DNA of 64,000 nt from Medicago truncatula (lineage: Eukaryota; Streptophyta; Magnoliopsida; Fabales; Fabaceae), in the NCBI RefSeq assembly GCF_003473485.1, contig NC_053043.1:15095001-15159000 (forward strand), given 5' to 3'. The notes below the pieces were generated by a model, which was not told the origin of the DNA, made no database searches, and saw only the letters and a list, made by a program, of their open reading frames with translations. The position numbers and the translations under genes were made by a program. Each line of letters begins with the position of its first letter. Within the stretch, counting starts at the first letter, position 1. Below are positions 3,113 through 46,149 of this stretch, in pieces.

Positions 3113-3880
3113 TCAACATATGTCGTGTTTTTGGTTACTCCAATGATTCTTTTGTATCACTAACGGGGTTGAGGTTTTCTGTTTCTCCGAGTTTCTATCC
3201 CTTGAATCATTAGTTTCATCAAGTTTATTGATATCATACTCTTCATTAAACACACATATTTCTTTAAGTTCCCTTTTATTTTAAGACTCACAAGGTTTGT
3301 CAAGTTTGTTGACATCATACTCTTCATTTAGCACACATATTTCTTCAAGTTTCCTTTTATTTTCAAACTCACAAGGTTCATCAAACTTGTTGATATCATA
3401 CTCTTCATTTAGCACACATATTTCTTCAAGTTTTATTTTATTTGCAGACTCATCAGGTTCATCAAGTTTGTTGATATCATACTCTTCATTAAGCACACAT
3501 ATTTCTTCAAGTTTCCTTTCATTTTCAAACTCAAAAGGTTCATCAAGTTTGTTGATATCATACTCTTCATTTAGCACACATATTTCTTCAAGTTTCCTTT
3601 TATCTTCAGACTCACAAGGTTCATCAAGTTTGTTGATATCATACTCTTCATTTAACACACATATTTTTTCAAGATTCCTTTTATCTTCAGACTCACAAGG
3701 TTCATCAAGTTCGTTGATATCATACTCTTCATTTAACACACATATTTTTTCAAGATTCCTTTTATCTTCAGACTCATCAGGTTCATCAAGTTTGTTGATA
3801 TCATACTCTTCATTTTCTTCAACTTTCATTTTGTTTACAGGATTTGGTATAGTCTTAGTCGATGACTCGAGTGAACACAT
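3113..3880 (-). pseudogene. Acidic 27-residue tandem-repeat protein, one internal stop
   Basis: On the minus strand an ATG at 3880 opens a frame of about seven and a half copies of a 27-residue unit with core NEEYDINKLDEPCES followed by a charged ED-K-R-L-E-x-I-C-V-L segment. The unit repeats at exactly 81 bp: the marker for the Asp-Ile-Asn step falls at 3230, 3311, 3392, 3473, 3554, 3635, 3716 and 3797. A TAA at 3281-3283 (Glu codon to stop) interrupts the frame after 199 residues, yet the same frame continues through another repeat and a non-repeated tail to TGA at 3113-3115. The ATG is directly preceded by atatttacag, a good splice acceptor, so this may be a downstream exon. I do not recognise the family. 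The product would be acidic, hydrophilic and probably disordered. Confidence 0.5.
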
Positions 3881-5990: not shown

Positions 5991-6050
5991 TAAAATAGTT
6001 TAAATAAATGGTAAAATTGAAAGAAAAATTTGTTATACTAAGGCTCATTT

Positions 6051-7487
6051 GTGCAGGCACTGACAGGTTCCACTAAGGCTGTTTTGAATTATAATTTTCC
6101 TCAACCAACGATTCGAGGAGAAAGAGTCACAATTAAGATTAATCTTGACTTTTATGAACGTGGAACGAATTTTTGCAAGTCTAATTTGCAGGGAAGACTT
6201 GTTTTGAACAAGGGAGACAAGCCCTATTCTGCAAAGGAAACTGAATCAAAATTACAGAAGCTTTGGAAGACAGGAGGGGCATGTCATATGCTTTATCTAG
6301 GAAGGGGGTACTATGAATTTTTCTTTGCCAACGAAATGGATATGTGCGCTTGGTCTGGGCTGTGGGCACGATGAACTTGAAGCCGGGTGTTCTTAGGCTT
6401 TTTCAGTGGTCAGAAGACTTCAACATGCGTACTCAACGCAATACACATGCTCAGGTGTGGATCCGATAGCTTGAACTGCCTCAGGAGTATTGGATGGAGC
6501 GGACGCTCCATGAGATTGCAAGTGAGGTGGGCACTCCTCTTTTGATCAACAATGCAACGACAAAGCGCTTATTCGGTCACCATGTCCGCATTTTGGTTGA
6601 TATGGATTTCTCTTGCAAGCTCTTTCACGAAATTGTGTTTGAAAGGGAAGGGTTTGATTTTACCGGATTTCTGCACTCATTGTCAAAGCATATGGCATGA
6701 TGTTACTGCTTGCCGACGTCTGTATCCTAGGAAAGAAACAACCACAACTAAGGAGAAGATTGCACAAGGGAAGAAGCATGTCCCAGTTGAGAAGGTTACT
6801 TGGGTACCTACTAAAGAGAATCCATCTGGCATTGGTTCCTCTACTGCCTTTGGCTCTACGAAGGCAAATGATTCTGTACCGATCAATGCAGATGACGAAA
6901 TGGAGGTAGTTCCTCAACAAGATTTGGATGTTTCTGTCCCTGTTCAGAATGTAACCGCAACTTTGGAGAAGGAAACAGAAACCGTAACATTGGAAATGGA
7001 AACAGAAACAGTGCAACAAGAATCTATGAACACAGATATTTCACTCCAGATTACCCTTGAGGCCGTAGAGTGAGCAGCAAGGCTCGGTGCAGCAACATCT
7101 CCCGTCCAGGGGGATGTTTCCATTAATCATTCAGAGGATATATCATCATCAATTCCGACACCGGTGGTAACTGATACTTCTCATACTCCTGTTATTATTA
7201 ATAATACATTTACAATGCAACTTGAGAATGTTTCCGATGAATTTGTTAGATATGATGTAGCAGAAAACCATGAACATGTTTTATCTCCCATTCGTGAGAA
7301 AGCCTTAGATGTCAGTAGCATTGTAACTCCGGAGGGTTCTCAAATACATCCGATGCTACGGAAAGACTTAAATTTTATGCAAGATTGGTTAGCAAAGGCT
7401 ACTGTTAATAATGAGGTACCTTTTACTGAGGTCATTTCAAAGTCACAAAAAAAAGTGCAAAAGGCTGCATACAAAACCCGCTCTTAG
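6051..7487 (+). pseudogene. LINE ORF1 (DUF4283 + zinc knuckle), disrupted
   Basis: Frames in order encode the DUF4283 domain (GKGYYEF-like motif present as LGRGYYEFFF, then LKPGVLRLFQW and THAQVWIR), a zf-CCHC_4 knuckle (FCTHCQSIWHDVTACRR) and a long acidic tail ending FTEVISKSQKK at 7487. In these LINEs ORF1 is the nucleic-acid-binding protein. There are at least three breaks: a frameshift near 6350-6370, an in-frame TAG near 6467 just after VWIR, and a frameshift near 6655; another TGA stop lies at 7071. No ATG is left because the 5' end is truncated. Clearly non-functional. Confidence 0.8.
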
Positions 7488-9530: not shown

Positions 9531-9548
9531 AACACGTGACATCACTCT
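9531..9548. repeat. Left 18-bp direct repeat flanking the transposon complex
   Basis: aacacgtgacatcactct here is repeated exactly at 15527-15544. It contains CACGTG, a G-box core. It may be a long target duplication or promoter sequence duplicated before insertion. Confidence 0.8.
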
Positions 9549-10932
9549 TTTATAAAAAGGCTTAAGTGCTATTTTGGTCCCTTAACTATTTAATTGGTAT
9601 CGCTTTGGTCCTTTAACTAAAAAAAAGATTGTTTGAGTACTTTAAGTTTTTTTTAGTTTCATTTTAGTCCTTTATGTTAGGTTTCTGTTAGGGTTTAAAA
9701 AAGTTAACTCCTAGACACATGTCACCTTGTCATTGACTCTGAGTTTTTTTTTTTTACAAAATAAAATAAAAAAAAAGTATTTTTTTTATTCATAAAAGAT
9801 ATATATATATATTTTTGTAAATTTCTTTTTTAGTTAAGCGATCAAACCGATACAAATTAAATACAGCCTTGCTATTCAGTACGGATATTTCTGTGCGGAA
9901 TTTCACGGACGCGTGTGAAATTTAACTTCCACGCGCTGCAATTGCTCAATTCCTACTTTTATTTTTTAATAAAAATCCAGACAAAATAAATTCTTTTGTT
10001 TAATCAGTTTTCAATATCTCTTCTAACAAACTATCATAAGCTTTCTTCTCTCCTTTCCTTCTCTACGTTGTCACTCATCACCATCCACCATCTGTTGATC
10101 ATTTTCGTCCGTCGTCGCTCAGTCATCGCCAACCACCGCAACTCGTCGGGAAACGCCGCCGAAGTTGATAATCTCCACCGCGATTAAAACATTACGTCGG
10201 AGACGGTAAAAGTAATTAAAAATGAAGTGAAACAACTCAATCAAAGTGGTAATTTTATAATTAGAAGATGAAAACATGATTATTTTGAGATTGAGATTGA
10301 TATTGATATTTAAGTCTAGATATAATCTAAATGCAAAGATCATGTAGAGATAATATGTGTATGATGAATATGTATTTCAGTTATGTATTGTTTTGTTTAT
10401 TCCACCCATAAGTTATTGTGCTTATTTCTGACCTTTGCAAGTAATGGCTGTCAGTTAGGTTCCATAAAACAACAATTGTGTGTATGTATATTAGAGCAAT
10501 AGCATAATAAAACAAGAATTGCTCTACATTCAATATATTGTTCCTCTGTTGATTGGTTGTACTTTAGAAGACAATGAGAATATTGTTGCTTCTGTCGTAA
10601 GGTTATGGTCAAAAGGGAACCAAAAGATTATGATCAATAGTTAAGGAACAATTTTGGTTTTATAAAACAACTGTTATTTGTCAGTGTGTATATGATAGCA
10701 GTAATCTAAGAAAAGAAGTATAATTCTGCATTCATCATTTTGTTTCTTAGTTCTTTGGCTGTACATCAGAATATGACTTCTGCAAGGTGTTAAAGCATGA
10801 CTATTCTATGATATAATCTCCTAAAATTTACGTTTCTATAAATTATATTGATTAATTCTCTGTGAATTGGAAGTTTAAGGGAAGTCAAATACTTATTTTG
10901 TAGTTATTTCTTTGATTGCAATTTTTTTGCAG

Positions 10933-11058
10933 CTTTCATCTCACCTTTTCTCGGATCTCCTTGATTCCATTATAGTTGATGTGGCATCAGAGTGTCACAG
11001 AGTAGCCAAGCTAGGGCTTGACACTAATTTGGTTGAAGAAGATGAAGAATTGAAGTTA
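10933..11058 (+). pseudogene. Captured SGF11-like exon inside the MULE
   Basis: After a good splice acceptor (atttttttgcag) one frame reads LSSHLFSDLLDSIIVDVASE and continues CHRVAKLGLDTNLVEEDEELKL. This matches the N-terminal helix of plant SGF11, the SAGA-associated factor of the deubiquitinase module (Arabidopsis has a similar L-L-D-S-I-I-V-D-V-A-S-E-C-H-R segment). The zinc-finger part is missing; homology stops near 11058. A GC-richer exon-like stretch ending at a GAGACG|gtaaaa donor near 10205 lies upstream with about 730 bp of intron between, so the piece was captured as genomic DNA. Confidence 0.65.
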
Positions 11059-11060
11059 TT

Positions 11061-11360
11061 GTGCAGGATGTTTCTTCCTTTGCTGAAGTGTTCAATGCAG
11101 CCTGTAGACCCACACCAGGAATGAGTAGCAGCAGAGAGCCTATACCAGAGTCCTCAAAAGGTTGGAAAAGCCATCCTTTGGGTGTTTTGAAAGATGCGAG
11201 ATGCTTTGAAGATGGGCACACATGTTGGGGTCTGATTGTTAGAAACCATGAGGGTGCGGTCATTACGGCAAAAAGAAAGATTGAAAATGTGTCCATGACT
11301 CCAATCCTAGCTGAAGTTGTGGGACTATGATGGTGCTTTAAATTGGCATTTGGATTTTAG
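11061..11360 (+). pseudogene. LINE RNase H-domain fragment inside the MULE
   Basis: The frame starting after the SGF11-like piece reads KGWKSHPLGVLKDARCFEDG then CWGLIVRNHEGAVITA and ILAEVVGL, followed by a stop and WCFKLA. This is the RVT_3-type RNase H-like domain found at the C-terminus of plant LINE ORF2 and related proteins, with the usual D-A-S-F site decayed. It fuses directly to the captured host exon. Confidence 0.6.
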
Positions 11361-11399
11361 GAGGTCTGTTAAGACTATCCATGCAATGTAATATTACTC

Positions 11400-12010
11400 A
11401 TGTCTATGTTATACATGTCAATCAATAAAAAGTCCATCTAACATCAATTTGTGTACTTCAAGTTTTAATATTCTTTAGTATTTCTTTTGGCATCAATAAC
11501 ATGATATTCCTTCCAAATAAAAGCTATAGATTTTTTTTAATCGGCAAATTATTCTCGTCGAGATTGTGTAAGGAACACGAAAATCTCGCGGATAAAATCA
11601 AACAAGAAGTAACGAGTACACATGAACACTAATACAACCACCTACCAAAACCACCCATAACAAAGCTAAAAACAGAAGCTTTATATTCCAAATTTGGTTG
11701 CTGCTAAAGGGTAAAAAACACTGAAGCAGCAACAAAACTGAACCAAAAAAAAAGCACACAACTAGCACTAAACAACCCATTCCATCTAACAATAATGCTT
11801 GACCAAAACAGCCGCACACTTGCTTGAGCAAAACAACAAACACTAAACAGCAGAACAGCATATTCCAACACAATTTCAAGCAGCCGCACACTTGCTTGAG
11901 CAAAACAGCAAACACTAAACAGCAGAACAACAATCACTAAACAACAATCCTGCAGACCCTCATGCCTTGATTGCAGAAAAACCAGACAGCAGTTCAAACC
12001 AAAAACAACA
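11400..12010. other. MULE internal DNA with 72-bp duplication
   Basis: Non-coding interior of the MULE between the captured fragments and the transposase 3' end. A unit beginning cagccgcacacttgcttgag occurs at 11809 and 11881 (period 72). Long minus-strand frames here are low-complexity by-products of this duplication. Confidence 0.55.
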
Positions 12011-12013
12011 GTG

Positions 12014-14923
12014 TTATGGTTTTGTGACCCGAGAGTAATAAGGAGCCTGCAAAGAATATATAATTAACCACTTATGTTCATTATAAAAATGTCAAATAAA
12101 AACAAGACAACACCAAAATCTATATTTGCACCTTGTTTACTTGACCAAAATGTTCTTGATTTGGATTGAAGGAAGCTACAGTATTCACACTACCATTTTC
12201 ACTGCTACAAACATAGTTATGCTCCTGTCATAGATATTAACATGCAAAAACATAGATAAATAGTATGCAATATCATATTGAATATTTCAAATAACAAAAG
12301 GCCAATCATTTTTAATTAAATGAAAGTAAGAAATCAGGTTTACTTGAATATTGTCTTGTGTCCCAGTCCCATCAAAAATTTGATACCTAAGAAACTCTTC
12401 ATTTGTAGTATTTTGAACTACATGCAATCTTAGTCCCTGTCATAAAAAAAACTATAATTAGACACACCCACATGTACACACACACACTACTGTGTTCAAC
12501 TGCATAAATAGTACCATTCAACCATTTAGAACTATGTTCACACTAAAATATTTACATAGAAATATTTACACTAAAATATTTAGTATATGCTTTGTTTACT
12601 TGAATGCTCTCTTGTGTGCCAATTCTATCACCAAGTTGAGATATGTAAAACACTTCGTCTTCAATTTCTTGACCTCTAGATGTACATTGGCCCTGCCATA
12701 AAAATTATTAAATTAGACATCTCAACTATTATACCTATAATATAAACAACTTGCTATAAATTTCATACTCACCTCTTCTTGAACTTGAATATTTTTACTA
12801 CTTTGGTTTCTTTTTTTAGTTTTCTTTTGTGCAAGCTTCTTCTTTACAATCTGATCAACTATAGAAGTCTTCCTTTTTGAAGGAGGACGCCCTTTACTTC
12901 GAGCTAGTTTAGGATCAAGAATGGTAGCTTGATTTTGAGTTGAACAATCTTCTTCTACAATTCTAGGAGATGTTTCATTACATGGTAACTCAATTTTCAT
13001 GTTTTGAATCAATTTCATCACTTTCACTAAATCATCGTCACTATTTATCCTCGTTGAAGCAAACTCATAAAAGGCATCACAAGCTTTACCCACGCGTTGC
13101 AATTCAGTTTTTCCAGCCAAATTATCAAAACCACATTTAATAAGTGTATACCTCCGCTTTATATCCTTCCTCCACCGTGCCAAAATATAATTAGATGGCA
13201 CGAAATCTGTTTTCCCTATGAGCTTAAGCACGCAAAGGATGTGCCTACATAAAATGCCTTTAAATTCAAACAAGCAGCAGGTGCATTTTAACACAAAGTC
13301 TTTTTCATTGAAGAACACCATCAACACAATATCTTTCATCGTGTCATATACTTTCTTACTTTCTGTAACATAAAATATTGAATCCAAACCCTCCAATCTG
13401 TTGAAACATGCATGACAGTACATCATAGAAGCTATTTCCAATTGGAATTCCTGAAACTTTGCATTGGTAAATGCTTTTTGGAATTGGAACTCAAAGCCAA
13501 AGTGACTAATACAAGAAATAACTGTATTAAAAGAACGAAAGTCAGCAATGTTTTCCTTTTCAATTTTGTCTTTCAATGCATTATCATATTGCTCAACAAA
13601 TTGCTTCAATGTTGTCTTTGAGCTTACATATCCATCAAAAAACGAGTTCATACTTTCACTTCGTTGTGTAGTTGACATTCCAGCCCAAAATGTGTCCCTT
13701 ACATATGCAGGGACCCAACGATGTCGCTCAACAAATAACCCTTTCAACCATTCGTTATCCTGTAGTTTGTAACACTCAATCATATTTTCCCACCTCGTCA
13801 TAAAATCACTTTTGGTAAAAGAATCATATACAATATCATGCAAAAGTGTTTTGATAGACTCGTAGTCAGAGTGACTACCAAACTTTTCTGGAATCTTTTT
13901 CATTAAATGCCATAAGCACCACCGATGACGAGCTTTCGGAAAGACAATCTCAATTGCATTCTTCATTGCTCTGTCTTGATCAGTGATTATGGCATTTGGA
14001 GAACTTCCATGCATACATTCCAACCATGTCTTAAATAACCAAGTAAAAGTTTCAGTATCCTCATTTGATAACAGAGCACAACCCAACAACATAGACTGAC
14101 CGTGATGATTTACTCCAACAAAAGGAGCAAAAGGCATGTCATATTTATTTGTTAAGTAAGTGGTGTCGAAAGTTATGACTTCACCAAAATATTCATATGC
14201 AACCCTACATCTTGCATCTGCCCAAAACACATTTTGTAACCGACTTTCATCATCCACATCCATCACATAATAAAATTGACTGTTTTGCTTTTGCATCCTC
14301 ACAAAATAATTTTGTATTGCTTCAGCATCTCCTGTCCCAAGTCGTAGTCGTCTTACTTTGTCTATGTAGTTTCTGCAGTCTTTTTCTCCAAATGTGAGAT
14401 TTTCATACCCATCTGCTTCAACAACAAAGGATCGGAAATTTCTACTTACATTAATCCCAGCTTGGTCATTGAGTTCTAACCTCCTCTTCATTTGTGCCCC
14501 TATATTCTTGTTCGATCTAAAATACCTTGCTTTCCCTGGACTTAGATCATGATTATGCTCAAAAAAAACACTTTTAATTTTAGTTGTTCCGTCTAAAGAA
14601 ATACACGCATTCAATCTAGCCTTACACTGCGTTTGAGTTATAGGATTTGGCTCTAACATATTCTTTGGGCGACTCACATACTTTCTAGCTCGACTACATG
14701 CTAAAGTAAAATACATTTTCCCCTCATCTCCTTTTTTTGAACTTATTTTTTTAACTCCAAAACCCACCCGTTCAGCATAATTCTTGTAATACTCAGTAAT
14801 TTCCTTTTCAGATCCGAATGACATCCCATCACAAGGTGTTTCTTCTTCACAAGTACCATTTGCTTCTAAACAATCATTAGTTTCCAATTCATCACAAGAC
14901 TCAAATCCTTTTTGCACTAACAC
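12014..14923 (-). CDS. MULE transposase, FAR1/FRS-like, multi-exon
   Basis: The large exon (12773-14923) encodes 717 residues in one frame: a FAR1-type zinc-binding DNA-binding domain (about 45-130, CSRAR then HNHD), the MULE transposase core with probable catalytic Asp253 (TFDTTY), Asp315/317 (ITDQD) and Glu423 (QRSESMN), and a SWIM zinc finger at 540-566 (C547, C549, C559, H561). I read four further phase-0 exons with canonical borders: 12600-12692, 12344-12436, 12141-12224 and 12014-12046 (TAA), giving 817 residues of open frame. The frame upstream of 14824 lacks an ATG and starts after a possible acceptor (gtgttag); the first ATG in the exon is at 14824, but conserved residues precede it, so a short 5' exon is likely. 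It probably binds and cuts MULE ends. No stop or frameshift is seen, so it may be functional. Confidence 0.85.
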
Positions 14924-15526
14924 AACAAATTAGAAGAAGAAAAAAAACCTATATTAATTGACTAACACAGTAAAGTAAATGAAAAATCAATCAATCGGCA
15001 CAAAATTCCTTCTAATAATCTATAAAAACAACAAATACACAAAATACTTACTTGTAGGTAAATTAAAACTGAAATACTCTGCTTTAGTGCTATGAATCAA
15101 TGGAAGCTATGATGGTAAGCAAAAACAGAGTTACATGAGAATGAATATGAGACCTGATTCAAAGAGACAAGAGCGTGAAAAAGAGAACGACGACCTTATA
15201 TCACAACAATTGAGATTGAATGTCAATCAGATTCTTTGATTAGCGGAAAAGATGAGATAATTGCTGCGGGAGTGGTGAACGTGGGTTCTTTTCTGTATGT
15301 TTTTGTTTTGGTGAACGGTGGGTTTCACTTTCATTTCTATTAAAGGATTTTATTATTTATTTAATTTAATATTGTTTGTTTTTGACAAAGAAACAGCAGC
15401 GCGTAGCACTAACAGGTTTTCACGCGTCCGTAATATTCCGTATTCAAAATTTTCGTACGATATATCATTTTCCAATTAAATATTAAGGACCAAAATAACA
15501 TTTAAGCCTTTTTAAAAAAAAAAAAA

Positions 15527-15544
15527 AACACGTGACATCACTCT
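15527..15544. repeat. Right 18-bp direct repeat, 63 bp before PTAC14 ATG
   Basis: Exact copy of the 18-bp block at 9531-9548, preceded by an A-run (15514-15528). It lies in the presumed promoter/5' UTR of PTAC14. Confidence 0.8.
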
Positions 15545-15606
15545 AGAAGGAACATAAAATGCTGGATAACGTTGTCTTTACCATTTTCCACTCTTGAGTT
15601 CACTCA
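15545..15606 (+). promoter_or_regulatory. Truncated native PTAC14 upstream region
   Basis: Only about 62 bp separate the right 18-bp repeat from the ATG, so most of the original promoter has been moved nearly 6 kb away to before 9531. The 18-bp repeat retains CACGTG, a G-box core typical of light-responsive plant promoters. Transcription may now depend on MULE-derived sequence; the MULE transposase is transcribed divergently from about 15.0-15.3 kb. Confidence 0.4.
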
Positions 15607-18600
15607 ATGGCTTCTTCTTTTCCACTTTATCAAACAAGTTTCTTCTCAAAAACCCAGGTTCAGTTTACTTCACTTCATTTCCCTTTCCATTTTTACATCT
15701 TTTTCTTCTCTCAAATCTCAAATAACTTTTAACTAATACTTGTTTACTTTCTAAACAGTTCAAAGGTTTGCGCCATGGTTATTTGTGGCGACCCACTTAC
15801 TCTTTTGGTTCTTGTGCTGAAAACAAAGTACAACCTGTTAAAGCTTCTGTCGAAACTGCCCCATTTCCCTTGTTTCAGCCTCCTAAAGATGAAGAAACAG
15901 CTTCTCAGGTAAAAACCCATTTTGCACCTTGTTTGTTTATTTATAGGTTGAAAGTAACAACTAGGACTAAGGAATGTTAAATTAGTTTATATATGCAAAA
16001 GAATGTTACCTTTTTTGGGTGCATATGAGACCTTTTTGTTGGTGGGCATAAAGGGAGTGTTTTAGTAGTCTTACCCTTAAGCCGGCCCTGGAATGTGTTA
16101 AAACAACAGCTCGGTTTAAGAAAATAAAGATACGAAAAATGCAAAAATGGAACATGATGTTTGGTAACAAAGTTCGGTCAATTGTGCCTATGTCTACATA
16201 AAGAAGAGCGGCTGCGATTCCTTTCTGTGAGTTTAGAGTATACAACTTGTACTCAAAGACTACGGTCCAGATTATAATGTTACCCCAGTTGCTCTTGTTT
16301 CGCTCGAGCAACCTATTCACTTATCATTAACTATGAGTTATGCCCAACAGGTTGATTGAGTTGAGTGAGTGAATGTTGTTTCCAAGGTTTTGAATAAAGG
16401 TTCTTAATTGATATTGCAACTGCAATGTGAAAGTTTTAGAGACCTTTGTTACTGCATTTGCGGCCCCATCAATGATATTTGTCTATGAAGGACTGAAACA
16501 TGACATTATACAGATATCGACATGTAGACACCTATAATTTTAGACGATGAAAGTGATTGTATATAAACACACATGTCAATGTCGTGTCAGTGTCGGACAC
16601 TCGGACATGCCTTAAATTTAAAGTCTCACTGCTACATGATTGCTCAGAGTTTTCTGCAATTTCAAAGATTGCAACAAAACGTTGACTGTGATTGCAATTT
16701 AAAATGTTGGATGGTTCAATAATTTGATGTGCTTTTGTGTGTATAATAGAGTAAAGTTAATTTTGAGATGCAGTATCTTCATTCCTATAAGGCCAGTTTT
16801 TGGATGAATTCTTTAAAGGGTCGTCTGTTTTTATGAAATTGGGATATTGAGTTGTGATATTGTTTCTTTGTGTTAATTTATTTGTTCCTGTAGTTGGAGC
16901 CTGTAGATCCTGATTTCTACAAGATAGGATTCGTCAGAAGTATGCGAGCTTATGGAGTTGATTTTATGGAAGGGCCAAATGGTTTCGGTGTATATGCTTC
17001 TAAAGATGTCGAACCTCTTCGCCGACCAAGGGTGAGTAGCCTCATACAAATCCTATGTAAGACTGGTGGCAGTGCATCATAATGAAAATAACGGCACATA
17101 TAATCAACTCCTAATTTGTATTTTACATGTTAGTTTAATTATTTGTATGATGTTCTTCATGATTATATTCTGAGTAGTTGTCCAAGGCTGTTTTCCCTAA
17201 CGATGAACTTGGGCAGGTTATAATGGAAATTCCTCTTGAATTGATGCTAACCATAAGCAAGAAACTACCATGGATGTTTTTCCCTGATATAATTCCCCTT
17301 GGTCATCCAATATTTGATATTATCAACTCAACAAATCCAGAGGTAATTGCAATTCTCCTCTGAAGTCATTAGTTCAAAATATGATATAATTGATTTCTTG
17401 ATTGTTTTCATGGTAAAATATATTTAACCAATTTGTATTGTAACTGTTGTATATACTCAAAAAAATCAAAACCGTTAGTTTTTCTAGTTATCTGCTTAAA
17501 GTAATTGTGTAAATCTTTGTGGCAGACAGATTGGGATTTACGATTAGCATGCCTTCTCTTGTTTTCATTTGACTGCAAAGACAACTTTTGGCAGTATTAC
17601 GGTGACTTCTTACCCAGTGAAGATGAAAGTACTAGCTTACTTCTAGCTACAGAGGTGCATAAAAAATAGATTTTCTTTATCATTAAACCATTGGTTGATA
17701 TTTAGCCAGCATCAGATGTATCTTGTAATTTTAAGATTTGAATAGCTACATTTGGAACATACCACAGTTTTAGAGTTCACTTTACGACATCTCATGTTGA
17801 TTTGTATATCTAGGAGGAACTTTTGGAGCTGCAGGATCCCGATCTTGCTTCTACAATGAGAGTTCAGCAACAACGAGTGTTAGAATTCTGGGAGAAGAAC
17901 TGGGTAGAGAGAAAATTGTCCTTGTTGAAATTTTTAGTCTTCTATGATGCATATCAATTAGTTTTTGTTCTCAACAAATGGTGTTACTCTTGTTCAGCAT
18001 AGTGGTGTGCCGCTCAAAGTAAAACGTCTTGCTCGTGATCCTCAAAGATTCATGTGGGCAGTAGGAATTGCACAGTCACGCTGTATCAACATGCAAATGA
18101 GAATGTGTGCACTAACTCAACAAGCGAATATGCTGATTCCTTATGCTGGTAAGCTTTGTTCACATCAAATGGTCTAACCAACTATTGTATCATTTTCTAC
18201 TCATGCATAGTAGCGGTTCTTGTTTATTTCACATTTGATGTAAAGTTTTTCTTTCCTTTTTGATAAAACAACAACAGAGGTAACTGATTAACTTAGTCTT
18301 GCTTTTCAGATATGCTGAACCATTCGTTTGAGCCAAATTGTTTTTTCCATTGGCGTTTTAAGGACAGGATGCTTGAGGTTCTTATAAATGCTGGACAACG
18401 GATAAGAAAGGGAGATGAGGTAAATCACTTTATACTTCTTTGAAGTATGCTTTTCGTGATTCCTTTCTTATATTAAACGTTACTGAGTGCAGATTTTGTT
18501 TTTATTCTTATAATATTGTTTGGCCTAAACTAGATAGACTTTTTGTGCAGAAAGTAAGTAAAAATATAGATGGACAGAGTGCATGACAAATTAATGCCAA

Positions 18601-21195
18601 ACTCTAGTGCTAGTATAAAAGAACTAGGAACCTCTCATATTCACTATGACTATACATAGAATGTTTTCTCTTATTATAGGAATTTCACATCCTCAGTGTA
18701 TATGTGGTAGTCATCAATGTTTTAAAAACTGGACTAGAGATGGAACTGGCTAGACGTTTGGATCATGGTTTAATTGGTTCAACCATGATTGAGCTGGATA
18801 ATAAATAAATAAACAAAACAATAAAATAAAATAATAAATATTGGGCTCACAAGAGTCGCCACCAAGCACACAAGCTTACCACTTTAACTCCACATCTGCA
18901 CACAAATATAATAAGCCTTCCAAGATATGTACCCCACATCTGATCCAATAAATGCAGGCATTTTTGTTGCAGAAATTATGAAATATAGTTTTAAAGGATG
19001 TGCTGGCCATGGCACTTGATGTACTCAATAAAGAAGTAGAAATTGCTATCAACTACACTTCATTACACAGCATTGAAGTTAATCGTCGCTGGTTTCAAAG
19101 TTCTGTATTCCCCCAATAAATCGATAATAAAAACTTTTTTTTTTTTTTCTACTTTGAATAATGAAATCTAAAATGATTCGAAACATGAATGCAAGAAAGA
19201 AATATTAAGAATATTTGTGGACAGGGGAGAAGTATGAGAATAGGAAGTTGTGGAGGAAACATGCAACACACGAGAAACAGAAGGGTTATTGTGAGCCTGC
19301 TGTTGCCTAAATCCGACATGGGCTAGTGTAACAGTGTAATAAAGCTGTTAATGTTATAAAAGAAATGATTTCTCTGATATCTAACCATGGAGCTGTGTAA
19401 TAACTGATAAGGAAATGCACGAGAGGGAGAATAATTATGGATTGTTTCCTTAAAAAACAAGTTTTGTGAGAAAAAAACGGAACCGGTTCTGCGGTTCATC
19501 CAGTTTTGTACCGGTTCTTTATACCTAGTGGTTTTTATTGTTCCAGTCATAATCAAAGTGACATAGGAGTTTTATTGTTCAGAAGCTTGAAAAATACTAA
19601 TTGGATAGTTTGTCAATGCTTTTAGAGCATACATGCTTTTAAGTTGGTGAAACTAATTTTTTTCCTACCATGTTTAAATTAACGTTTGTATTATTTCATT
19701 GTGAGATGTGGATATCCTAATTATATTGTCCAAAATTATAACAGATGACAGTTGATTACATGAGTGCACAGAAGAACGGCATGTTAATGCAACGATACGG
19801 ATTTTCATCGCCAGTGGTAACTTTCTTTCTCCTAAATCATTTTGAAAGGAAGTTTTTGTTTATGCTCTCTGTGCTGAAACATTGTGGGCTGATAGGATAA
19901 AGGACACTATCCAATTGGGGATATCTAAAATTTAAAAGTTATAAGACACGACACACCTATAATACTACAATCTTCCCTAAATATAGGTCCTCATCGACTA
20001 AACCACGAGCATTAAGGAAGTTTGTATTGTTAACATCTATTATTTTTGTGCGCCCATTGTCACCATATATGTGCATTTGCTTCTTTGAAGTATTTTCATT
20101 ATACTGTTCTTTCATTATTCTTTGATGAATATTCATTTAAACTTATACATGCTTGCTATTTGATCAACCGGATTTTGAAAATTTAGTTCTCAAAGTCACT
20201 TAAATTTGCAGAATCCTTGGGATGTGATCAAATTCTCAGGCAATGCACAAATTCATTTGGATTCCTTTTTGTCAGTCTTCAACATATCTGGCCTTCCTGA
20301 AGAGTATTATCGTAACGGTATGGTCAATATTACTTTAAATTCTAGAATCCACTTTCTTTCTTACACTTTTCTCTATTCAAATCAGAATTATTTAGGATAT
20401 CAGTATGAATTCTTAGCAGAAGTTCTATCGAGCACTGGAGATACTTTTGTCGATGGAGCAGTCATAGCTGCAGCACGAACATTGCCAACATGGTCAGATG
20501 GAGATGTGCCTCCAATTCCAAGTGAGGAAAGGAAAGCTGCGAAGGCATTACAACAAGAGTGCAAACAAATGCTTGCAGAATTTGCTACCACCTCTAAGCA
20601 AGACCAGAAACTGTTAGGTAATTCAGTGTTCTTATCTTGATACTAGAAAGAAAGTAGAAACATGACACTGATTGTCATTGAATTTCCATGACGATTAGTG
20701 TCATGTTTCTCCTTTTAAAATTCTTTCAAAATGTAGTTCTAATATTTACTTTATCGGTGGGAATAGAAACATGAAACGCCTGAAGTAATCAGGCCCTTGT
20801 TTTTCGCAATATGACTGTGTTGTGCAGTTAATTACTAGACTTTGCTTTTATGATAAGTATTTCTTTTATGATCTTTATACGATAAAAAAAGCTAAACTAA
20901 TCCTTAGCTTTCATTTAATGACCACAGATTCATCACCCGAAGCTACGAGAACTCTTGAAGCTACAATAAAGTATGTTGAATTCACACAATCTAGCAGTTT
21001 CATAAACTTTGTAAATTGGTTCAAAGAAAAATAAACTTTGTAAATTTTAATTTCATTAGCATCTAAACCCTCTAGTAATCATTTTTTTTTTCTTTATGTG
21101 AATGTGACGTATACAGGTATAGATTGCACAGAAAATTGTTAATGGAAAAAGTTATCCTTGCATTGGAGATCTATCAAGAGCAAATATTATTCTGA
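15607..21195 (+). CDS. PTAC14: Plastid SET-domain protein PTAC14, 13 exons
   Basis: Thirteen exons with GT-AG borders join to 480 residues, close to the 483 of Arabidopsis PTAC14: 15607-15657, 15759-15908, 16894-17031, 17217-17342, 17526-17654, 17814-17903, 17998-18148, 18310-18419, 19745-19816, 20212-20317, 20420-20617, 20928-20970 and 21117-21195. The N-terminus (MASSFPLYQTSFFSKTQ) is Ser/Thr-rich as for a chloroplast transit peptide. The SET core runs from GFGVYASKDVEPLRR to the NHSFEPNC motif and MTVDYM; a Rubisco-LSMT-like substrate-binding region follows (SFVDG-like FVDGAVIAAARTLPTW) and the end is ALEIYQEQILF. PTAC14 belongs to the plastid-encoded RNA polymerase complex and is needed for chloroplast transcription. 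The intron after residue N of YYRN uses acceptor cttagcag; reading straight through it would add extra residues. A 6-kb transposon complex ends about 80 bp upstream. Confidence 0.92.
16480..16620. repeat. Dispersed repeat in PTAC14 intron 2
   Basis: Sequence rich in gacacc and tgtcg steps (catgtcaatgtcgtgtcagt, then cggacactcggacatgcc) resembles a stretch at 62850-63025 in the second MOSC gene. It is probably a MITE relative. Boundaries are not defined. Confidence 0.4.
18718..19545. repeat. Possible insertion in PTAC14 intron 8
   Basis: Intron 8 (18420-19744) is much longer than its neighbours. It contains a left end tttaaaaactggactagaga and a right end with ggaaccggttctgcggttca and gtaccggttcttta, which are loosely inverted. 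Such gaaccggtt ends are common in plant MITEs. No coding sequence; the class is uncertain. Confidence 0.35.
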
Positions 21196-22672
21196 TTTCC
21201 AATCTACTAACTGTACAATAGCCACAAAAGTTTTGTAACAATTGTTGTCTACTTTTAATCATGTATTACTGGTTTAGTCAATGGTTTCAGATTGTATTAT
21301 GTTATATTCATTTTGTTACATCAGAAAAAAAGTGCGGTAGTAGTAGTTATTTGATCGTAACCAAAACCATCAAAGGACCATCATTACATGTTCATTGATT
21401 TAAAGTACAACAGAGAAAACAACATAAACTTATTGAGTATTCATCTTCCATGAAATCAATAATGGACTTTGTTTCTCTAATAAATGGAAAAAGTGAAGAG
21501 TGAAACATATTTCATCGTGATTCATTCATATTGCATACACCGGAGAACATGAAAGACAAAAGAATGGAAATAATCCCCATTCTCCGTGCAAAAACAAAAC
21601 ATGTAAAAAGAGTGTTACTAGCATTATTTCATATTTGTTTATACATTTTTTTTTTTTTTAAATTCGGTATTTGTCATAAAAACAGACTAATTTAGAAGAT
21701 CAATTCCATTTTTCATTAACGGGAGTTCTTATTAAATTATGAATTGATCCAACACAATAATTATTAGCATCTAAAGGATTCAAATCTGAAACAATAAGAC
21801 AAGTACGCTTCGAAGTTCTAAGCCTAAACCACTAACCAACCCTAGAGGTTGTTAGTTTATTTTTATATCTTTTCGTATGGAGACTAAATCAAGTCAATTA
21901 ATCGCAAATGTACTGTTCTTCCAAAAAACAGAAAATTAATCCCAAATGTATTAATTATCATCCCTAATATATTTATCAATTTGACAATAAAGACCAACAC
22001 CATTCCCCTACTTTAAGATAATTGTCCTTTTCTGTATACAAAATAAAATTGAATATATATTTATAAAAGAAAAAGTCAATGAATAAACTATATAGAATCA
22101 AAAAAATTCTAATTTATTATTTTTACCCACAAATGAAATAAAATAAAATATTACCATGAAGTATGAACAGACCCGTGAAACACATAAAATATGGGGTGGC
22201 AACTTAAACTATAGTTTCCTTGGTCGGATAAAATATCAAAATCAAACTCATATTCAACTGATCCTATTTATTGATTGGTTAACTCAAAGAAACCAATTAC
22301 AGCTTCACAATATCATCACCATTTATCTTGGAATATAAAACAAGACCAACCTTCACAATGAGACCAATCCAAAAGCAATATTGAGAGAGTGGAGTTGAGA
22401 TCTGTTCCAAGTTAACCAAAACTACTAAAGATTAATACTTCATTATTTCAACATTCAGGTTCCTTCTTCTTTTTATTAGTATATATTTATTTATTTATTT
22501 CAATTCTGTATAAGAATTATTGATAACCTGTTTCATATCTTATTGGATGACTTCACTAAGTAATTTTATAGACCTCACTTGTTAAATAGAAGCAACAGAA
22601 ATAGGTTAAATTGTAAAAATTTAAACATGACCGATAAACTAATCGATATTGAATTGATGATATTTTTAGAAA
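21196..22672. other. Intergenic, nothing recognised
   Basis: PTAC14 3' flank and DUF247 5' flank. AT-rich, no element termini or coding frame I can support. Confidence 0.5.
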
Positions 22673-23958
22673 ATGGAGGCAAAAGCAAATGGTTATGTGC
22701 AACTGAAGAATGAATTGATTGAAATGCTTGAAAGAGTGGTTCTTCCAGAAGTGTCTCGAATCAATGAGCAATACATCTATAAAGTATCACAAAAAATTCG
22801 CCAACATAATCCACAAGCTTATACGCCTCAAATTATTTAATTGGTCCTTTTCACAATCCACATGGCTCAATTAGTGACAACAACATTTTGCATCAAATGG
22901 AAGAACTCAAACTCAAATATCTCAAGGGATTTCTAACTAGAACACATCTGTGTGTGGTTGATTTTGTTCTAAAACTTCAAGAGTGGGAAAGTAGAATTCG
23001 AGGTTGTTATGCAGGGCTTGATAGCTTTAACAACAACGATTTCTTAAAAATCATTATAATTGATGCATGCTTCATAATTGAACTTTTTCTTAGATGTTAT
23101 TTTAGAAACGCATATTGTTTGAAAAATGACCCTATATTATCAAAACCTTGGTTACTTGATGACATTATTCGTGACTTAGTATTACTTGAAAACCAGCTAC
23201 CCTATTTTGTTCTTGAAGACATATACAAATTAGCTGGTTTAAATCCTGAATTTCCCTCATTTACTACAATTACTATACATTATTTTCAACATTTCAACGT
23301 ACAGAACATAAACTCAGAAAGAGCGCAATGTCCAAAACACTTCACAGATCTTCTAAGAACATTTTTGCTGCCATTATCATTTGATTTTGTACAAGAAGTG
23401 GGAAATGCAATTGAACATGTATACAGTGTGAGCCAATTATCAGAAGCAGGATTAGTATTTCAAGTAAGTGAAAGTAAATGCTTACTTGACTTGGAATTTG
23501 ATAAGGGCGTCTTGAAAATGCCATGCTTTCATGTTTATGATTCAACAGAGATGTACATGAGGAATATATTGGCATTTGAAGAATGTAACTATTCAGGTCA
23601 AAACTACATTACTCAGTACTTAATTATGTTAGATTTTCTTATTAATAGCGAAAAGGATGTGAGCATCTTAGTTGAAAAGGGAATTATTGTCAACTGGATG
23701 GGTGATGCTAATGCATTGGATACAATGATCAACAATCTTTGCAAAAATATCTCAATGTATAGATTCAATTCAAAATATCGATCTCTATGCAAGGGGTTAA
23801 ATGGTTTCTATGAAAACCCTAGGAATAAATATAAGGCTATCTTTGTTCATGAGTACTTCAACACTCCTTGGAAAATAGCTTCAACTATTACTGCTGTATT
23901 GCTGCTTCTGTTTACTTTCATCCAGGCTGTATGTTCGATCTGGTCATTATTTAAATAA
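22673..23958 (+). pseudogene. DUF247 protein gene with one frameshift
   Basis: An ATG at 22673 opens 55 codons containing IYKVSQKIRQHNPQAYTPQI and then hits TAA at 22838. In the next frame the reading continues IGPFHNPHGS-like and LHQMEELKLKYLKGFL to a stop at 23958, the standard order of the plant DUF247 family. One base appears missing near 22836 where relatives have a Ser-Ile-Gly-Pro-F-H motif. The downstream frame (356 residues from 22888) includes PWLLDDIIRDLVLLENQLPY, and the C-terminus ends in a hydrophobic segment (WKIASTITAVLLLLFTFI), the usual single membrane anchor. DUF247 functions are mostly unknown; some members act in grass self-incompatibility. A sequencing error, or translation from 22888, cannot be excluded. 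Confidence 0.75.
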
Positions 23959-24293
23959 TGATACAATTAATATTATGTAATATGTTAATCCTTAGCTACT
24001 TTGCAAATTACAATGTCCCTTGTTAGTACATCGATTTTCTTACTAGTTTTTCTTGGGTGCAATGGAGAATTCAAAACTACACTGATTATACATTATTGTT
24101 GGATTTAGGTTCTACACTTAATTTTTTTATTTATTTTTATATATTGCTAATGCTTCATAATTGAGTACTTATAAAATGACTTATAGAATTCGAGGTTTTC
24201 TACTCTTTCTAAAATGACTTCATAATTGACGTCTATAGGTGTATGCTTCTATGGATCTTATCCCCTTCTGTACTGTAAATCTAATGTCCATGT

Positions 24294-24720
24294 CTTGATA
24301 CTAGAAAGAGTAGAAACATGGCACTGATCGTCACAAATAATTTGTATGATTAAAACAAAGCTTTTTTTAGTTTACTAGTAACTTTTATGATAAAAGCTTA
24401 AGTAAATTGTTAGCTTATACATAATGACCACAGATTCATCACGAGAAGCTACGAGAACTCCTAAAGCCACAATTAAGTATGTTGAATTCACATCATCTGG
24501 AAGTTTCATAAGCTTTATAAATTTTAATTTCATTAGCATCTTAACCCTTTTATAAGTTATTTTATAGTAACATTGTTGTGGACCTGCAGTCCTGTATCAC
24601 TAGTTTAGCCAATGGGTTCAGATTGTACTATGTCATGTTCATTATGTTGCATAAAGAAGTGTAAAAGAGTTGTTATGTGATAACCATAAACCGATCAAAG
24701 GACCTTATTATTTGTTCACT
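24294..24720 (+). pseudogene. Duplicated PTAC14 tail fragment
   Basis: The segment aligns with PTAC14 sequence from just after exon 11 through exon 12 and the 3' flank (about 20636-21380) with internal deletions. Exon 12 is present at 24434-24476, again 43 bp with the same splice borders (accacag before, gtatgttg after), but with substitutions. Exon 13 is gone. It lies on the far side of the DUF247 gene, so DUF247 is flanked by direct copies of PTAC14 3' sequence. Confidence 0.75.
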
Positions 24721-37684: not shown

Positions 37685-38204
37685 ATGACTAGGAAAAAGG
37701 TGAAGCTCACCTTCATTGTCAATGACGCTGCTCAGAAAGCAACCTATAAAAAAAGAAAGAATAATTTATTGAAGAAGGTCGATGAACTAAGCACGCTTTG
37801 TGGTATTGAAGCATGTGCTATAGTTCAAGGTCCTCATGAACCTCAACCTCATATTTGGCCATCATCATGGGGAGTTCATAGGGTGCTCTCAAAATTCAGG
37901 ACTATGCCTGAATTAGAGAAGAACAAGAAAATGATGAACCAAGAGACATTCATGAGGCAACGGGTTTTGAAGGCTAAGGAGAAAGTGGAAAAACTAAGGA
38001 AGGGAAACAGGGAGCAAGAGATGACAATGATCATGTTTCAATGTCTTAATTAATGCTGAAAAAATTATGCACGATGATACGTCAATGATTGATTTGAATG
38101 TTCTTGCTTGGTTGATTGATCAAAATTTGAAGGATATTCATAGAAGATTGGAAGAAGTGGATAATAATGGTCATCCAAGTCAAGTCATGACTACTCAAAG
38201 TTAA
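37685..38204 (+). pseudogene. Type I MADS gene, copy 1, C-terminal frameshift
   Basis: The ATG at 37685 starts MTRKKVKLTFIVNDAAQKAT with KKRKNNLLKKVDELSTLCGI, a MADS box of the M-gamma (AGL80-like) type, then the characteristic PHIWPSSWGVHRVL and MNQETFMRQRV segments. The frame stops at 38053 after 122 residues. Compared with copy 2 (40.6 kb), four extra bases (taat, 38046-38053) shift the frame; without them the homologous C-terminus would run to the TAA at 38202-38204. The DNA-binding part is intact, so a shortened protein could still be made. M-gamma MADS proteins usually act in the female gametophyte and endosperm. Confidence 0.75.
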
Positions 38205-38786
38205 GTTCAACTTCAAATGACGCCACCACCAACAATTTATAGATTAAATATTCTATGGTTGCTTAGGGTTGGTAGGTTTTATGTAATATGTTGTTCCATT
38301 TACCAAGTTGGTAGGGGTTTAATGATGTATGATTTGTATGGTTTTTTTTTCTTGAGCTACCCAACCTTCCTGTTTGTTTATGCTAAACTTGTTGTTCTTG
38401 TTTGTGTGTGTGTTTTTTTTGTTTTTTTTCGGGGTGGTTTGGTAAAGAGTTCGTGGTGCTTTGTGATTCGTGGAGGGGTGTAGTTTGTTTTTGGTTTTGG
38501 CTGTTGTGAGGTTTTGTTTGCTTAGAGTAGCAGCAGTTTGGACCATGGGTGAGCCTCAAGTTTTGGTGCTTATTTAGTTATGTTGTGTTTTCTTTGTTGT
38601 TTTTGGGATTTTTTATGAGAAAAGTTATAAAATTGAAATTAAAATATTTATTTTAATAATTGAAGGATGCAATTCAAGTTAACAATATCATCATCGGTAG
38701 TTAAAGCAAGATCTTACATACAAATTATAAAATAAATTTATTTAAACAAACTATTTTGTATCCAAAATTACAATTTGATATATTTT
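38205..38786. other. 3' flank of MADS copy 1, duplicated at 41.0 kb
   Basis: Matches 41005-41500 closely (accaacaatttatagattaa in both). No gene. Ends at the 9-bp target site of the next element. Confidence 0.7.
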
Positions 38787-40634: not shown

Positions 40635-40996
40635 CAAACACACCCTATATTTGGCCATCACCATGAGGAGTTCATAGGGTGCTCTCAAAATTCAGGACTA
40701 TGCATGAATCGAAGAAGACCAAGAAAATTATGAACCAGGAGACATTCATGGTGCAAAGGGTTTTGAAGGTAAAGGAGAAAGTGAAAAAACTAAGGAAGGG
40801 CAACAGGGAAAATGAGATTACAATCATCATGTTTCAATGTATTAATGCTGAAGAAATTGTGCACAATGATATGTCAATGATTGATTTGAATGATCTTGCT
40901 TGGTTGATTGACCAAAATTTGAAGGAAACTGATAGAAGATTGGAAAAAGTGGATAATAATGGTCATATAAATCAAGTCATGACTACTCAAAGTTAA
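40635..40996 (+). pseudogene. Type I MADS gene, copy 2, lacks MADS box
   Basis: Homology to copy 1 begins abruptly near 40635 at the Pro-x-Trp-Pro-Ser segment, so the MADS box is missing. The first Trp codon after that segment is TGA. From 40679 the frame is open: VLSKFRTMHESKKTKKIMNQ, then a Lys-rich stretch and a C-terminus ending QVMTTQS at 40996. It keeps the C-terminal part that copy 1 has lost by frameshift. No start codon or promoter is evident. Confidence 0.75.
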
Positions 40997-41770
40997 GTTC
41001 AACTCCAAATGACACCACCACCAACAATTTATAGATTAAATATTCTATGGTTGTTTAGGGTTGGTAGGTTTTGTTTAATTTGTTGTACTATTTACCATGT
41101 TGGTAGAGGTTTGTTGATGTATGATTTATATGAGTTTTTTTTTCTCTTGGGCCACCCAACCTTTCTGTCATTGGTGCAATTGTTAACACTTAACATAAAG
41201 GTTTGTGCTAGGGTGGGAAGTATAGAGAGATGTGGATTTCTGCTGCACTTGTCGTGCATGTATGTGTGTTTTTTGTTTCGGGTGGTTTGGTATAAAGAGT
41301 TCGTAGTGCTCTGTGTTCCGTGTAAGAGTGTGGTCTGTTTTTTGTTATGGATTAGAGTAGCAGCGGTTTGGTCCTTGGAGCCTTAAGTTTTGGTACTTTA
41401 GTTATGTTTTGTTGCTTTTTTGTTTTGGGTATTTTTTTATGACAAAAGTTTAAAATAATTTACTCATTGACAAAAGTTATAAAATAATTTGACATATTTT
41501 AAAATCAAATAAATTTTACTGTAAACATAGCTCTTTAAATTAAAATTTCATTCGATTCATAATTCAATGGAGAGAATATATATGTAGAAAAGCAATTAAG
41601 TGATTATTAGTACAAAATCATACTCATTGAGATTTGTACAACTATACTTTTCTCTTTTTACTTTTCGTGATATAGGTCATACATAAATATTAGTTACCGA
41701 AATTGTGATTTATATGATATATTATGTTATCTTGAATTTAGATTAGGAAATTATTGTCTACCATATATAT
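40997..41770. other. 3' flank of MADS copy 2 (second half of the duplication)
   Basis: Parallels the flank of copy 1 and includes the empty target site of the 1,285-bp element near 41491-41520. Confidence 0.7.
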
Positions 41771-45633: not shown

Positions 45634-46149
45634 GGGTTAATGCTATTTTGGTCCCTTAAGTATTTACTTCCTCCGTTTCAAAATTTACATTTAGGTTCAT
45701 TCATTTAATGATGTATGTGGTCTATATTATGAACCACATACATCATTAAATGAATGAACCTAAAAAGTGAATTTTGCTTATATTTTGATACGGAGGAAGT
45801 AATTGGTATCGCTTTGGTCCCTTAACTAAAAAAAAAGATTGTTTGAGTACTTTAAGTTTTTTTTTACTCTCGTTTTGGTCCCTTCAGTTAAGTTTCCATT
45901 AGGTTTAATAAAATAATTTTTTTTGTCAAAAAAATTATTGTTTTTTGTAAAAAGAATAATCTCAAAGCCAATGACAAGGTGACACGTGTTCAGGAGTTAA
46001 CTTTTTTTTAAAACCCTAACAGAAACCTAACAGAAGGGACCAAAACGAGACTAAAAAAAAACTTAAAGTACTAAAACAATTTTTTTTTTAGTTAAGAGAC
46101 CAAAACGATTCCAACTAAATACTTAAGGAACCAAAAGAGCATTCAAACC
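45634..46149. mobile_element. Mutator-type MITE, 9-bp TSD
   Basis: Flanked by taagatttt at 45625-45633 and 46150-46158. The ends gggttaatgctattttggtc and its near complement begin inverted repeats of about 170 bp that make the element largely palindromic. It is the same family as the MITE that carries the FAR1 MULE at 9.5-15.5 kb. A Stowaway element has inserted in its left arm. Confidence 0.85.
45667..45799. mobile_element. 133-bp Stowaway MITE nested in the Mutator MITE
   Basis: cttcctccgtttcaaaattt ... gatacggaggaag with TA at 45665-45666 and 45800-45801. The centre is a near-perfect hairpin: 45691-45721 pairs with 45733-45763 around an 11-base loop. Confidence 0.85.

What the first reader, a model, noticed from the sequence alone, without database searches (positions are those of the whole stretch)
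9531..15544. Nested transposon complex directly upstream of PTAC14
A MULE (9-bp TSD aattaaata) sits inside a Mutator-type MITE, and the whole complex ends about 80 bp before the PTAC14 ATG, displacing the native promoter by nearly 6 kb. The transposase gene is divergent from PTAC14 with a few hundred bases between. PTAC14 is needed for plastid transcription, so the gene must either have a new promoter or be impaired at this locus.
Basis: partly seen in the sequence, partly recalled or inferred. Interest (0 to 1): 0.75.

Follow-up and report, generated by a model that had tools for sequence, protein, structure and literature searches.

The report
Three nested transposons before PTAC14
A plant gene needed for chloroplast transcription has about 6,000 bases of jumping-gene DNA inserted, probably in three successive layers, just before its start, but one copy of a common light-response motif and the last 62 bases of its leader are still in place, so the gene may well still work.

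Summary
A 5.6-kb MULE (9864-15473) with a FAR1-type transposase and a perfect 9-bp target duplication lies inside a 331-bp Mutator-type MITE. The 18-bp perfect repeat at the outer edges (9531-9548, 15527-15544) is not the MITE's own target duplication: the MITE has its own 10-bp duplication (9/10) further in, and a sister copy in the window fixes its ends. The 18-bp repeat borders an A15 tract, which points to an older poly(A)/retroposon scar: probably three nested events, not two.

PTAC14 is an intact 13-exon, 480-codon gene. The 18-bp repeat contains a G-box (CACGTG), so the oldest event duplicated it. One copy remains 73-78 bp before the ATG, with 62 bp of original leader. "Native promoter displaced by 6 kb" is therefore only partly right: the distal part moved, the most proximal part did not.

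Most likely PTAC14 is transcribed from starts close to the ATG, with the MULE's right end as its new upstream neighbour. Whether expression is normal, altered or lost cannot be decided from sequence. Insertions of this kind are known, including a MULE upstream of rice PsbS1. A modest extra: FAR1-site-like ACGCG motifs sit at both MULE ends.

The parts
9531..9548 (.). 5' copy of the outermost 18-bp direct repeat AACACGTGACATCACTCT, with G-box CACGTG at 9533
9549..9558 (.). MITE target duplication, 5' copy TTTATAAAAA
   Evidence: 9 of 10 identical to 15509-15518; boundary fixed by the sister copy at 45634
9559..9863 (.). left part of the Mutator-type MITE (starts GGCTTAAGTGC); includes the MULE TSD copy 9855-9863
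   Evidence: matches the sister MITE at 85.2% over 216 positions (inverted orientation) and 86.8% over 114
9855..9863 (.). MULE target duplication AATTAAATA, 5' copy
9864..15473 (.). inner FAR1-type MULE, 5,610 bp
   Evidence: TSD, TIRs, transposase domains
9864..9943 (.). left terminal 80 bp of the MULE with ACGCG-core sites at 9909 and 9931 (CACGCGC at 9930)
12722..14824 (-). main transposase ORF from the first ATG that opens the long frame (14824); FAR1, MULE, SWIM domains; likely spliced to further small exons downstream (exons read by eye)
15394..15473 (.). right terminal 80 bp of the MULE with ACGCG-core sites at 15400 and 15422, about 180-207 bp before the PTAC14 ATG; no exact CACGCGC here
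15474..15482 (.). MULE target duplication AATTAAATA, 3' copy
15483..15508 (.). right part of the MITE (ends CATTTAAGCC)
15509..15518 (.). MITE target duplication, 3' copy TTTTTAAAAA
15514..15528 (+). A15 tract running into the 3' outer repeat (its last two A's are the repeat's first two): possible poly(A) tail of a truncated retroposon
   Evidence: one of 8 A-runs of 12 or more in the window
15527..15544 (.). 3' copy of the 18-bp direct repeat; G-box CACGTG at 15529-15534
15545..15606 (+). 62 bp of remaining original leader/proximal promoter: CATAAAA (TATA-like, one mismatch) at 15553; upstream ATG at 15559 opens a 12-codon uORF ending at 15597
15607..21195 (+). PTAC14 (PAP7) gene, 13 coding exons, 480 codons, no interruption; all 12 introns GT-AG

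Best explanation
Three insertions happened one inside the other just upstream of PTAC14. First, a poly(A)-ended scrap (probably a severely 5'-truncated retroposon) inserted and duplicated 18 bp that include a G-box. Second, a 331-bp Mutator-type MITE inserted into the A-rich scrap. Third, a 5.6-kb FAR1-type MULE with an apparently open transposase frame inserted into the MITE. In all, 5,996 bp separate the distal native promoter from PTAC14, but one G-box copy and 62 bp of native leader still adjoin the ATG. PTAC14 most likely stays functional, with transcription starting near the ATG from this retained proximal piece and the MULE's right end as the new upstream flank. Shown: the nested elements, their duplications, the intact gene, the retained G-box. 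Inferred: the retroposon nature of the oldest scrap, and everything about transcription.
For: The 18-bp repeat is perfect (0 of 200,000 random pairs). The MULE TSD is 9/9 (2e-5 of random pairs). The MITE TSD is 9/10, with its ends fixed by a sister copy that has a 9/9 TSD. The A15 tract runs into the 3' copy of the 18-bp repeat; a random place lies within 3 bp after such an A-run with probability about 0.0005, or 0.0024 counting A- and T-runs on either side. The G-box CACGTG lies inside the 18-bp repeat at 15529. PTAC14 is uninterrupted; a 488-codon model matched solved PAP7 chains to their last residue, and the corrected model has 480 codons. The next methionine is codon 84, so the transcript must start upstream of 15607 to keep the N-terminal targeting region (inference).
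Against: No transcript start, expression or relative's promoter was available. The MITE TSD is AT-only, and 1.9% of random AT-only pairs match as well. The retroposon layer has no recognisable body, only about 18 nt. No perfect TATAWAW lies on the + strand in 15200-15606, and the only TATA-like site in the last 66 bp has one mismatch. A G-box is a common motif: 3.3 expected and 5 seen in the window, two of them the repeat itself. An intact ORF could also mean that the insertion is too recent for decay; the 27 identical TSD pairs bound the age only loosely, at under about 5.6 or 9.3 My for two assumed rates.
Confidence: 0.5

Rival explanations
1. The MULE/MITE right end supplies an outward-reading promoter that now drives PTAC14, as reported for Mu1 at maize hcf106.
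For: Mutator TIRs are described as holding promoters (PMC3310237, start of abstract in listing). [quoted passage not shown] the hcf106 details are recalled). The MULE right end is 134 bp upstream of the ATG and the transposase is divergent from there. One CCAAT lies at 15472 at the MULE's right edge. A rice promoter with a MULE upstream of PsbS1 gave more GUS than the type without it (PMC4178011, section 16).
Against: No perfect TATAWAW on the + strand in 15200-15606, though only about 0.9 would be expected by chance, so this is weak. Any start upstream of 15559 puts a 12-codon uORF in the leader.
Confidence: 0.27
2. PTAC14 is silenced or weakened at this locus and another copy carries the function, as with the unexpressed pTAC14 copy in Mimulus guttatus.
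For: Transposon DNA is often methylated (general knowledge). pTAC14 duplication with loss of expression of the ancestral copy is known (PMC5896889, abstract and section 8). A decayed PTAC14 tail lies in the same window at 24275-24718, so the gene has been duplicated here before.
Against: The ORF and all splice sites are intact, whereas the silent Mimulus copy has a frameshift. tblastn found no second full copy in the window; the rest of the genome could not be searched.
Confidence: 0.15
3. The native promoter left of 9531 still drives PTAC14 and the whole complex is spliced out as a 6-kb 5'-UTR intron.
For: An AG lies just after the 3' repeat (CTCTAG ending at 15546, seen).
Against: No pyrimidine tract before it (an A15 run instead); a transposase gene in opposite direction inside; rare arrangement.
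Confidence: 0.04
4. The 18-bp repeat arose by double-strand-break repair or tandem duplication with a filler, not by retroposition. The rest is unchanged (this rival concerns layer 1 only).
For: The insert between the repeats, once MITE and MULE are set aside, is only about 18 nt.
Against: The insert ends in a pure A tract directly against the downstream repeat copy, and 18 bp is within the usual LINE target-duplication range (recalled).
Confidence: 0.35

Closest known systems
OsMULE-JSS1 upstream of rice OsPsbS1 (PMC4178011; abstract, sections 16 and 17 read)
   Same: MULE with 9-bp TSD close upstream of a nuclear photosynthesis gene; present in some accessions and absent in others; promoter with the MULE gave more reporter activity
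   Different: 2.7 kb, 0.4 kb from the gene, catalytic domain described as close to AtMu1; here 6 kb, 62-80 bp from the ATG, nested in a MITE, FAR1-type transposase, and no expression data
hcf106::Mu1 in maize (Barkan and Martienssen 1991; title only, in reference lists; details recalled)
   Same: Mutator element at the 5' end of a nuclear chloroplast gene; outward-reading promoter near the element's end
   Different: Known suppressible mutant allele, much shorter element (recalled); here no phenotype or transcript is known
Jittery/FAR1 clade of MULEs (clade IV in PMC3903597; passages read)
   Same: Transposase with MULE domain, here also FAR1 and SWIM domains; inverted terminal repeats; 9-bp TSD
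   Different: No tree was built, so clade membership rests on domains only
Mutator MITEs / MIR2655-type MITE
   Same: Long inverted repeat, GG...CC ends, 9-10-bp TSD; sister copy at 45634-46149 just reaches the Rfam MIR2655 threshold (122.2 against 122 bits)
   Different: The copy at PTAC14 itself does not reach it (26.4 bits) and is split by the MULE
Mimulus pTAC14 duplicates (PMC5896889; abstract, passages and section 8 read)
   Same: Same gene; loss of expression of one locus is lethal only where no other copy works
   Different: There a frameshift and no expression; here an intact gene with transposons upstream

Membership tests
MULE (Mutator-like element) | 8-11-bp target site duplication | tested here: met
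   AATTAAATA, 9/9; criterion as in PMC3903597
MULE (Mutator-like element) | terminal inverted repeats | tested here: met
   local score 69 against shuffle maximum 42 of 300; imperfect; the 75% identity rule of PMC3903597 was not computed
MULE (Mutator-like element) | MULE transposase domain | tested here: met
   PF10551 E 6.1e-39
FAR1/Jittery-type MULE | FAR1 DNA-binding domain and SWIM finger with the transposase domain | tested here: met
   PF03101 E 1.7e-10, PF04434 E 7.1e-06, both above curated cut-off
FAR1/Jittery-type MULE | groups with Jittery/FAR1 in a transposase tree | not tested
   no plant protein database at hand
FAR1/Jittery-type MULE | catalytically complete DDE transposase | not tested
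   ORF open through all domains; catalytic residues not aligned; no PDB relative at E up to 1
Mutator-type MITE | short element with TIRs | tested here: met
   331 bp with the MULE set aside; inverted repeats (I1, I2)
Mutator-type MITE | 9-10-bp TSD | tested here: met
   9/10 here (weak alone); sister copy 9/9 TAAGATTTT
Rfam MIR2655 | gathering score 122 bits | tested here: not met
   26.4 bits for the PTAC14 copy; 122.2 for the sister at 45819-46099
LINE-type retroposition (layer 1) | poly(A) tract adjoining the 3' target duplication | tested here: met
   A15 at 15514-15528
LINE-type retroposition (layer 1) | recognisable LINE/SINE body | tested here: not met
   insert of only about 18 nt; therefore offered as likely mechanism, not filed as a member of a named family
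PTAC14/PAP7 | SET and Rubisco-LSMT-like domains, full-length match to PAP7 | tested here: met
   PF00856 and PF09273; 8w9z_J E 5.6e-238 and 8qma_J E 6.7e-222, aligned to the last residue; both calls used the 488-codon model

The most novel reading that the evidence does not exclude
The MULE brought FHY3/FAR1-type binding sites to PTAC14. ACGCG cores are conserved at both MULE ends (the left end has one exact CACGCGC, the published FHY3/FAR1 site; the right end has only variants), probably as the transposase's own binding sites, and the right-end pair now lies 180-207 bp before the PTAC14 ATG beside the retained G-box. Host FHY3/FAR1 proteins, themselves domesticated from such transposases, could thus control plastid transcription through this allele. 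More generally, the published FHY3/FAR1 site would be the ancestral end sequence of FAR1-type MULEs.
Probability: 0.1. Interest if true: 0.6.

Novelty: new member of a known kind. Interest (0 to 1): 0.35.

Why it matters
If PTAC14 is still expressed normally here, the locus shows how little native promoter an essential plastid gene can keep and how a target-site duplication can save a regulatory motif by copying it. If it is not, it would be a candidate cause of hybrid or accession-specific albinism, as for Mimulus pTAC14. The conserved ACGCG motifs at the ends of a FAR1-type MULE give a direct test of whether the FHY3/FAR1 promoter site began as a transposon end.

Tried and rejected
Own-genome search with the stretch 15487-15700 (for other copies and the empty site): not completed. 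PTAC14 relatives in genome contigs: 15 pattern stretches, none confirmed. Transposase relatives in viral contigs: 2 stretches, none confirmed. PDB relatives of the transposase: none at E up to 1. The reading of the 18-bp repeat as the MITE's TSD was rejected because the ends of the sister MITE place the boundary 10 bp further in on the left and 18 bp further in on the right. The MITE as a member of Rfam MIR2655 was rejected for this copy. A first PTAC14 model (488 codons, used; its first 339 codons) had exon 11 begin at 20396 and gave an 8-residue gap against 8w9z_J; it was replaced by an acceptor at 20420 (480 codons; used), which was not re-run against the PDB or Pfam. Literature search for pTAC14, transposon insertion, promoter, legume: 266 papers held three of the four terms; none of the 12 listed contained pTAC14; the others were not seen. 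A search for MIR2655 with MITE: 7 papers, none of which held the word MITE. A search for PAP promoters with G-box and HY5 gave 3 papers; I read passages of one, which do not speak of a PTAC14 G-box.
Full report
What is there. The sequence AACACGTGACATCACTCT occurs twice on the + strand of the window, at 9531 and 15527. Between the copies lie a MITE and, inside it, a MULE. Random pairs of places at similar spacing never matched 18/18 in 200,000 draws.

Inner layer. The MULE spans 9864-15473 (5,610 bp), flanked by AATTAAATA on both sides; 9/9 matches occur in about 2e-5 of random pairs. Its ends form an imperfect inverted repeat (score 69; 300 mononucleotide shuffles, mean 25.9, maximum 42). The minus strand holds a 735-codon stop-to-stop frame at 12722-14929 with Pfam FAR1, MULE and SWIM domains above their curated cut-offs. 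The first ATG that opens the long frame is at 14824 and keeps the FAR1 domain. Small downstream exons were read by eye only. No solved structure is related at E up to 1.

Middle layer. The MITE begins GGCTTAAGTGC at 9559 and ends CATTTAAGCC at 15508; with the MULE and one TSD copy left out it is 331 bp. A sister copy at 45634-46149 aligns in two blocks (114 positions at 86.8%; 216 positions at 85.2% in inverted orientation, as expected of a near-palindromic element), begins GGGTTAATGC, ends CATTCAAACC, and is flanked by TAAGATTTT on both sides. This fixes the MITE ends and shows a 9-bp Mutator-type TSD in the family. At PTAC14 the corresponding flanks are TTTATAAAAA and TTTTTAAAAA, 9 of 10 alike. 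This is weak alone, since 1.9% of random AT-only pairs do as well.

Outer layer. The 18-bp repeat lies directly outside the MITE's own duplication on the left; on the right it is separated from it by 8 more A's of an A15 run. The simplest reading is an older insertion: a short scrap ending in poly(A), flanked by an 18-bp duplication, as a strongly 5'-truncated LINE-type insertion leaves (recalled). A random place lies within 3 bp after an A-run of 12 or more with probability about 0.0005, or about 0.0024 if A- and T-runs on either side are counted. The scrap has no recognisable body, so break repair with a filler remains possible.

The gene. PTAC14 starts at 15607 and has 13 coding exons to 21195 with GT-AG introns and 480 codons. 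An earlier 488-codon model matched solved PAP7 chains over nearly the whole length and to the last residue (8w9z_J E 5.6e-238, 8xzv_I E 6.2e-226, 8qma_J E 6.7e-222) and has SET and Rubisco-LSMT-like domains. There is no frameshift or stop. Because the next methionine is codon 84, transcripts that start downstream would lose the N-terminal targeting region (inference; no targeting predictor was run).

What this means for the promoter. The 18-bp repeat contains the G-box CACGTG, so the oldest event copied it: one at 9533 moved away, one at 15529 stayed 73-78 bp before the ATG. The motif is not rare: 5 in the window, these two included, against 3.3 expected. HY5 binds the G-box and controls photosynthesis-associated nuclear genes (PMC9478734, passages); no paper that I read reports a G-box in a PTAC14 promoter. 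The remaining 62 bp hold a TATA-like CATAAAA with one mismatch at 15553 and an upstream ATG at 15559 with a 12-codon uORF. No perfect TATAWAW lies on the + strand between 15200 and 15606, against about 0.9 expected, and none on the minus strand of 14824-15473, against about 1.3. A start near 15580-15600 would use the retained piece and avoid the uORF; a start in the transposon would include it. I therefore rate retained proximal promoter above transposon promoter, and both above silencing, without decisive evidence.

Relation to the known. Maize Mu elements prefer 5' ends of genes and upstream regions (PMC2774946, passages), so such an insertion is not surprising. A rice promoter with a MULE upstream of PsbS1 gave higher reporter activity than the type without it (PMC4178011, abstract and sections 16-17). 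[quoted passage not shown] In Mimulus the ancestral pTAC14 copy is no longer expressed in M. guttatus and hybrids without a working copy die (PMC5896889, abstract, passages and section 8).

An extra point. ACGCG cores occur at 7 places in 64 kb, and 4 of the 7 lie in the two terminal 80-bp stretches of the MULE (binomial 1.4e-9). This figure overstates the case: the motif was chosen after looking, the two ends are copies of one inverted repeat, and the ends are CpG-rich in general (15 of the window's 845 CpGs). The published FHY3/FAR1 site is CACGCGC (PMC6000157, PMC8599713, PMC13306707, passages); it occurs once in the window on either strand, at 9930 in the left end, so the end next to PTAC14 has only variants of it. 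The passages that I read do not discuss this site in transposon ends; I did not read those papers whole.

Limits. The window's own genome could not be searched. The organism is probably a legume near Medicago; this rests on the Rfam MIR2655 match and on recall of where that family is found.

Noticed in passing
24275-24718: Decayed copy of the PTAC14 3' end (intron 11, exon 12, 3' flank; exon 13 missing), four blocks of 77-87% identity to 20618-21394, beyond a DUF247 gene at 22810-23958: trace of an old local PTAC14 duplication.
   Followed up: partly
45634-46149: Sister copy of the MITE with a 9/9 TSD; its middle (45819-46099) just reaches the Rfam MIR2655 threshold, so that miRNA family looks MITE-derived. 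It is itself split by another inverted-repeat element at 45664-45802.
   Followed up: partly
10933-11055 and 11163-11327: Possible captured gene pieces inside the MULE: a 41-residue frame whose best PDB match is a SAGA factor 11 homologue (E 0.64, weak) and an RNase H-like frame (RVT_3 E 0.19, below cut-off).
   Followed up: partly
9905-9939 and 15396-15431: ACGGACGCGTG and ACGCGCTGC are present in both MULE ends: candidate transposase binding sites resembling the FHY3/FAR1 site.
   Followed up: partly
37851-38633 and 40647-41456: Duplicated MADS-box-like segment, 79% identical; a further SRF-TF-like frame at 46840-47301 falls just below its Pfam cut-off.
   Followed up: no
55638-58171 and 61570-63996: Tandem duplication with blocks of 77-86% identity about 5.7-6.4 kb apart.
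   Followed up: no
3182-3840: 81-bp repeat array that reads as repeats of EEYDINKLDEP and variants on the minus strand.
   Followed up: no
20651-20715: 65-bp near-palindrome in PTAC14 intron 11, 86% self-complementary.
   Followed up: no
6042-7487: GC-richer broken frames without a Pfam match for the two of three frames tested (6042-6374, 6546-7073), resembling retroelement remains by eye.
   Followed up: no
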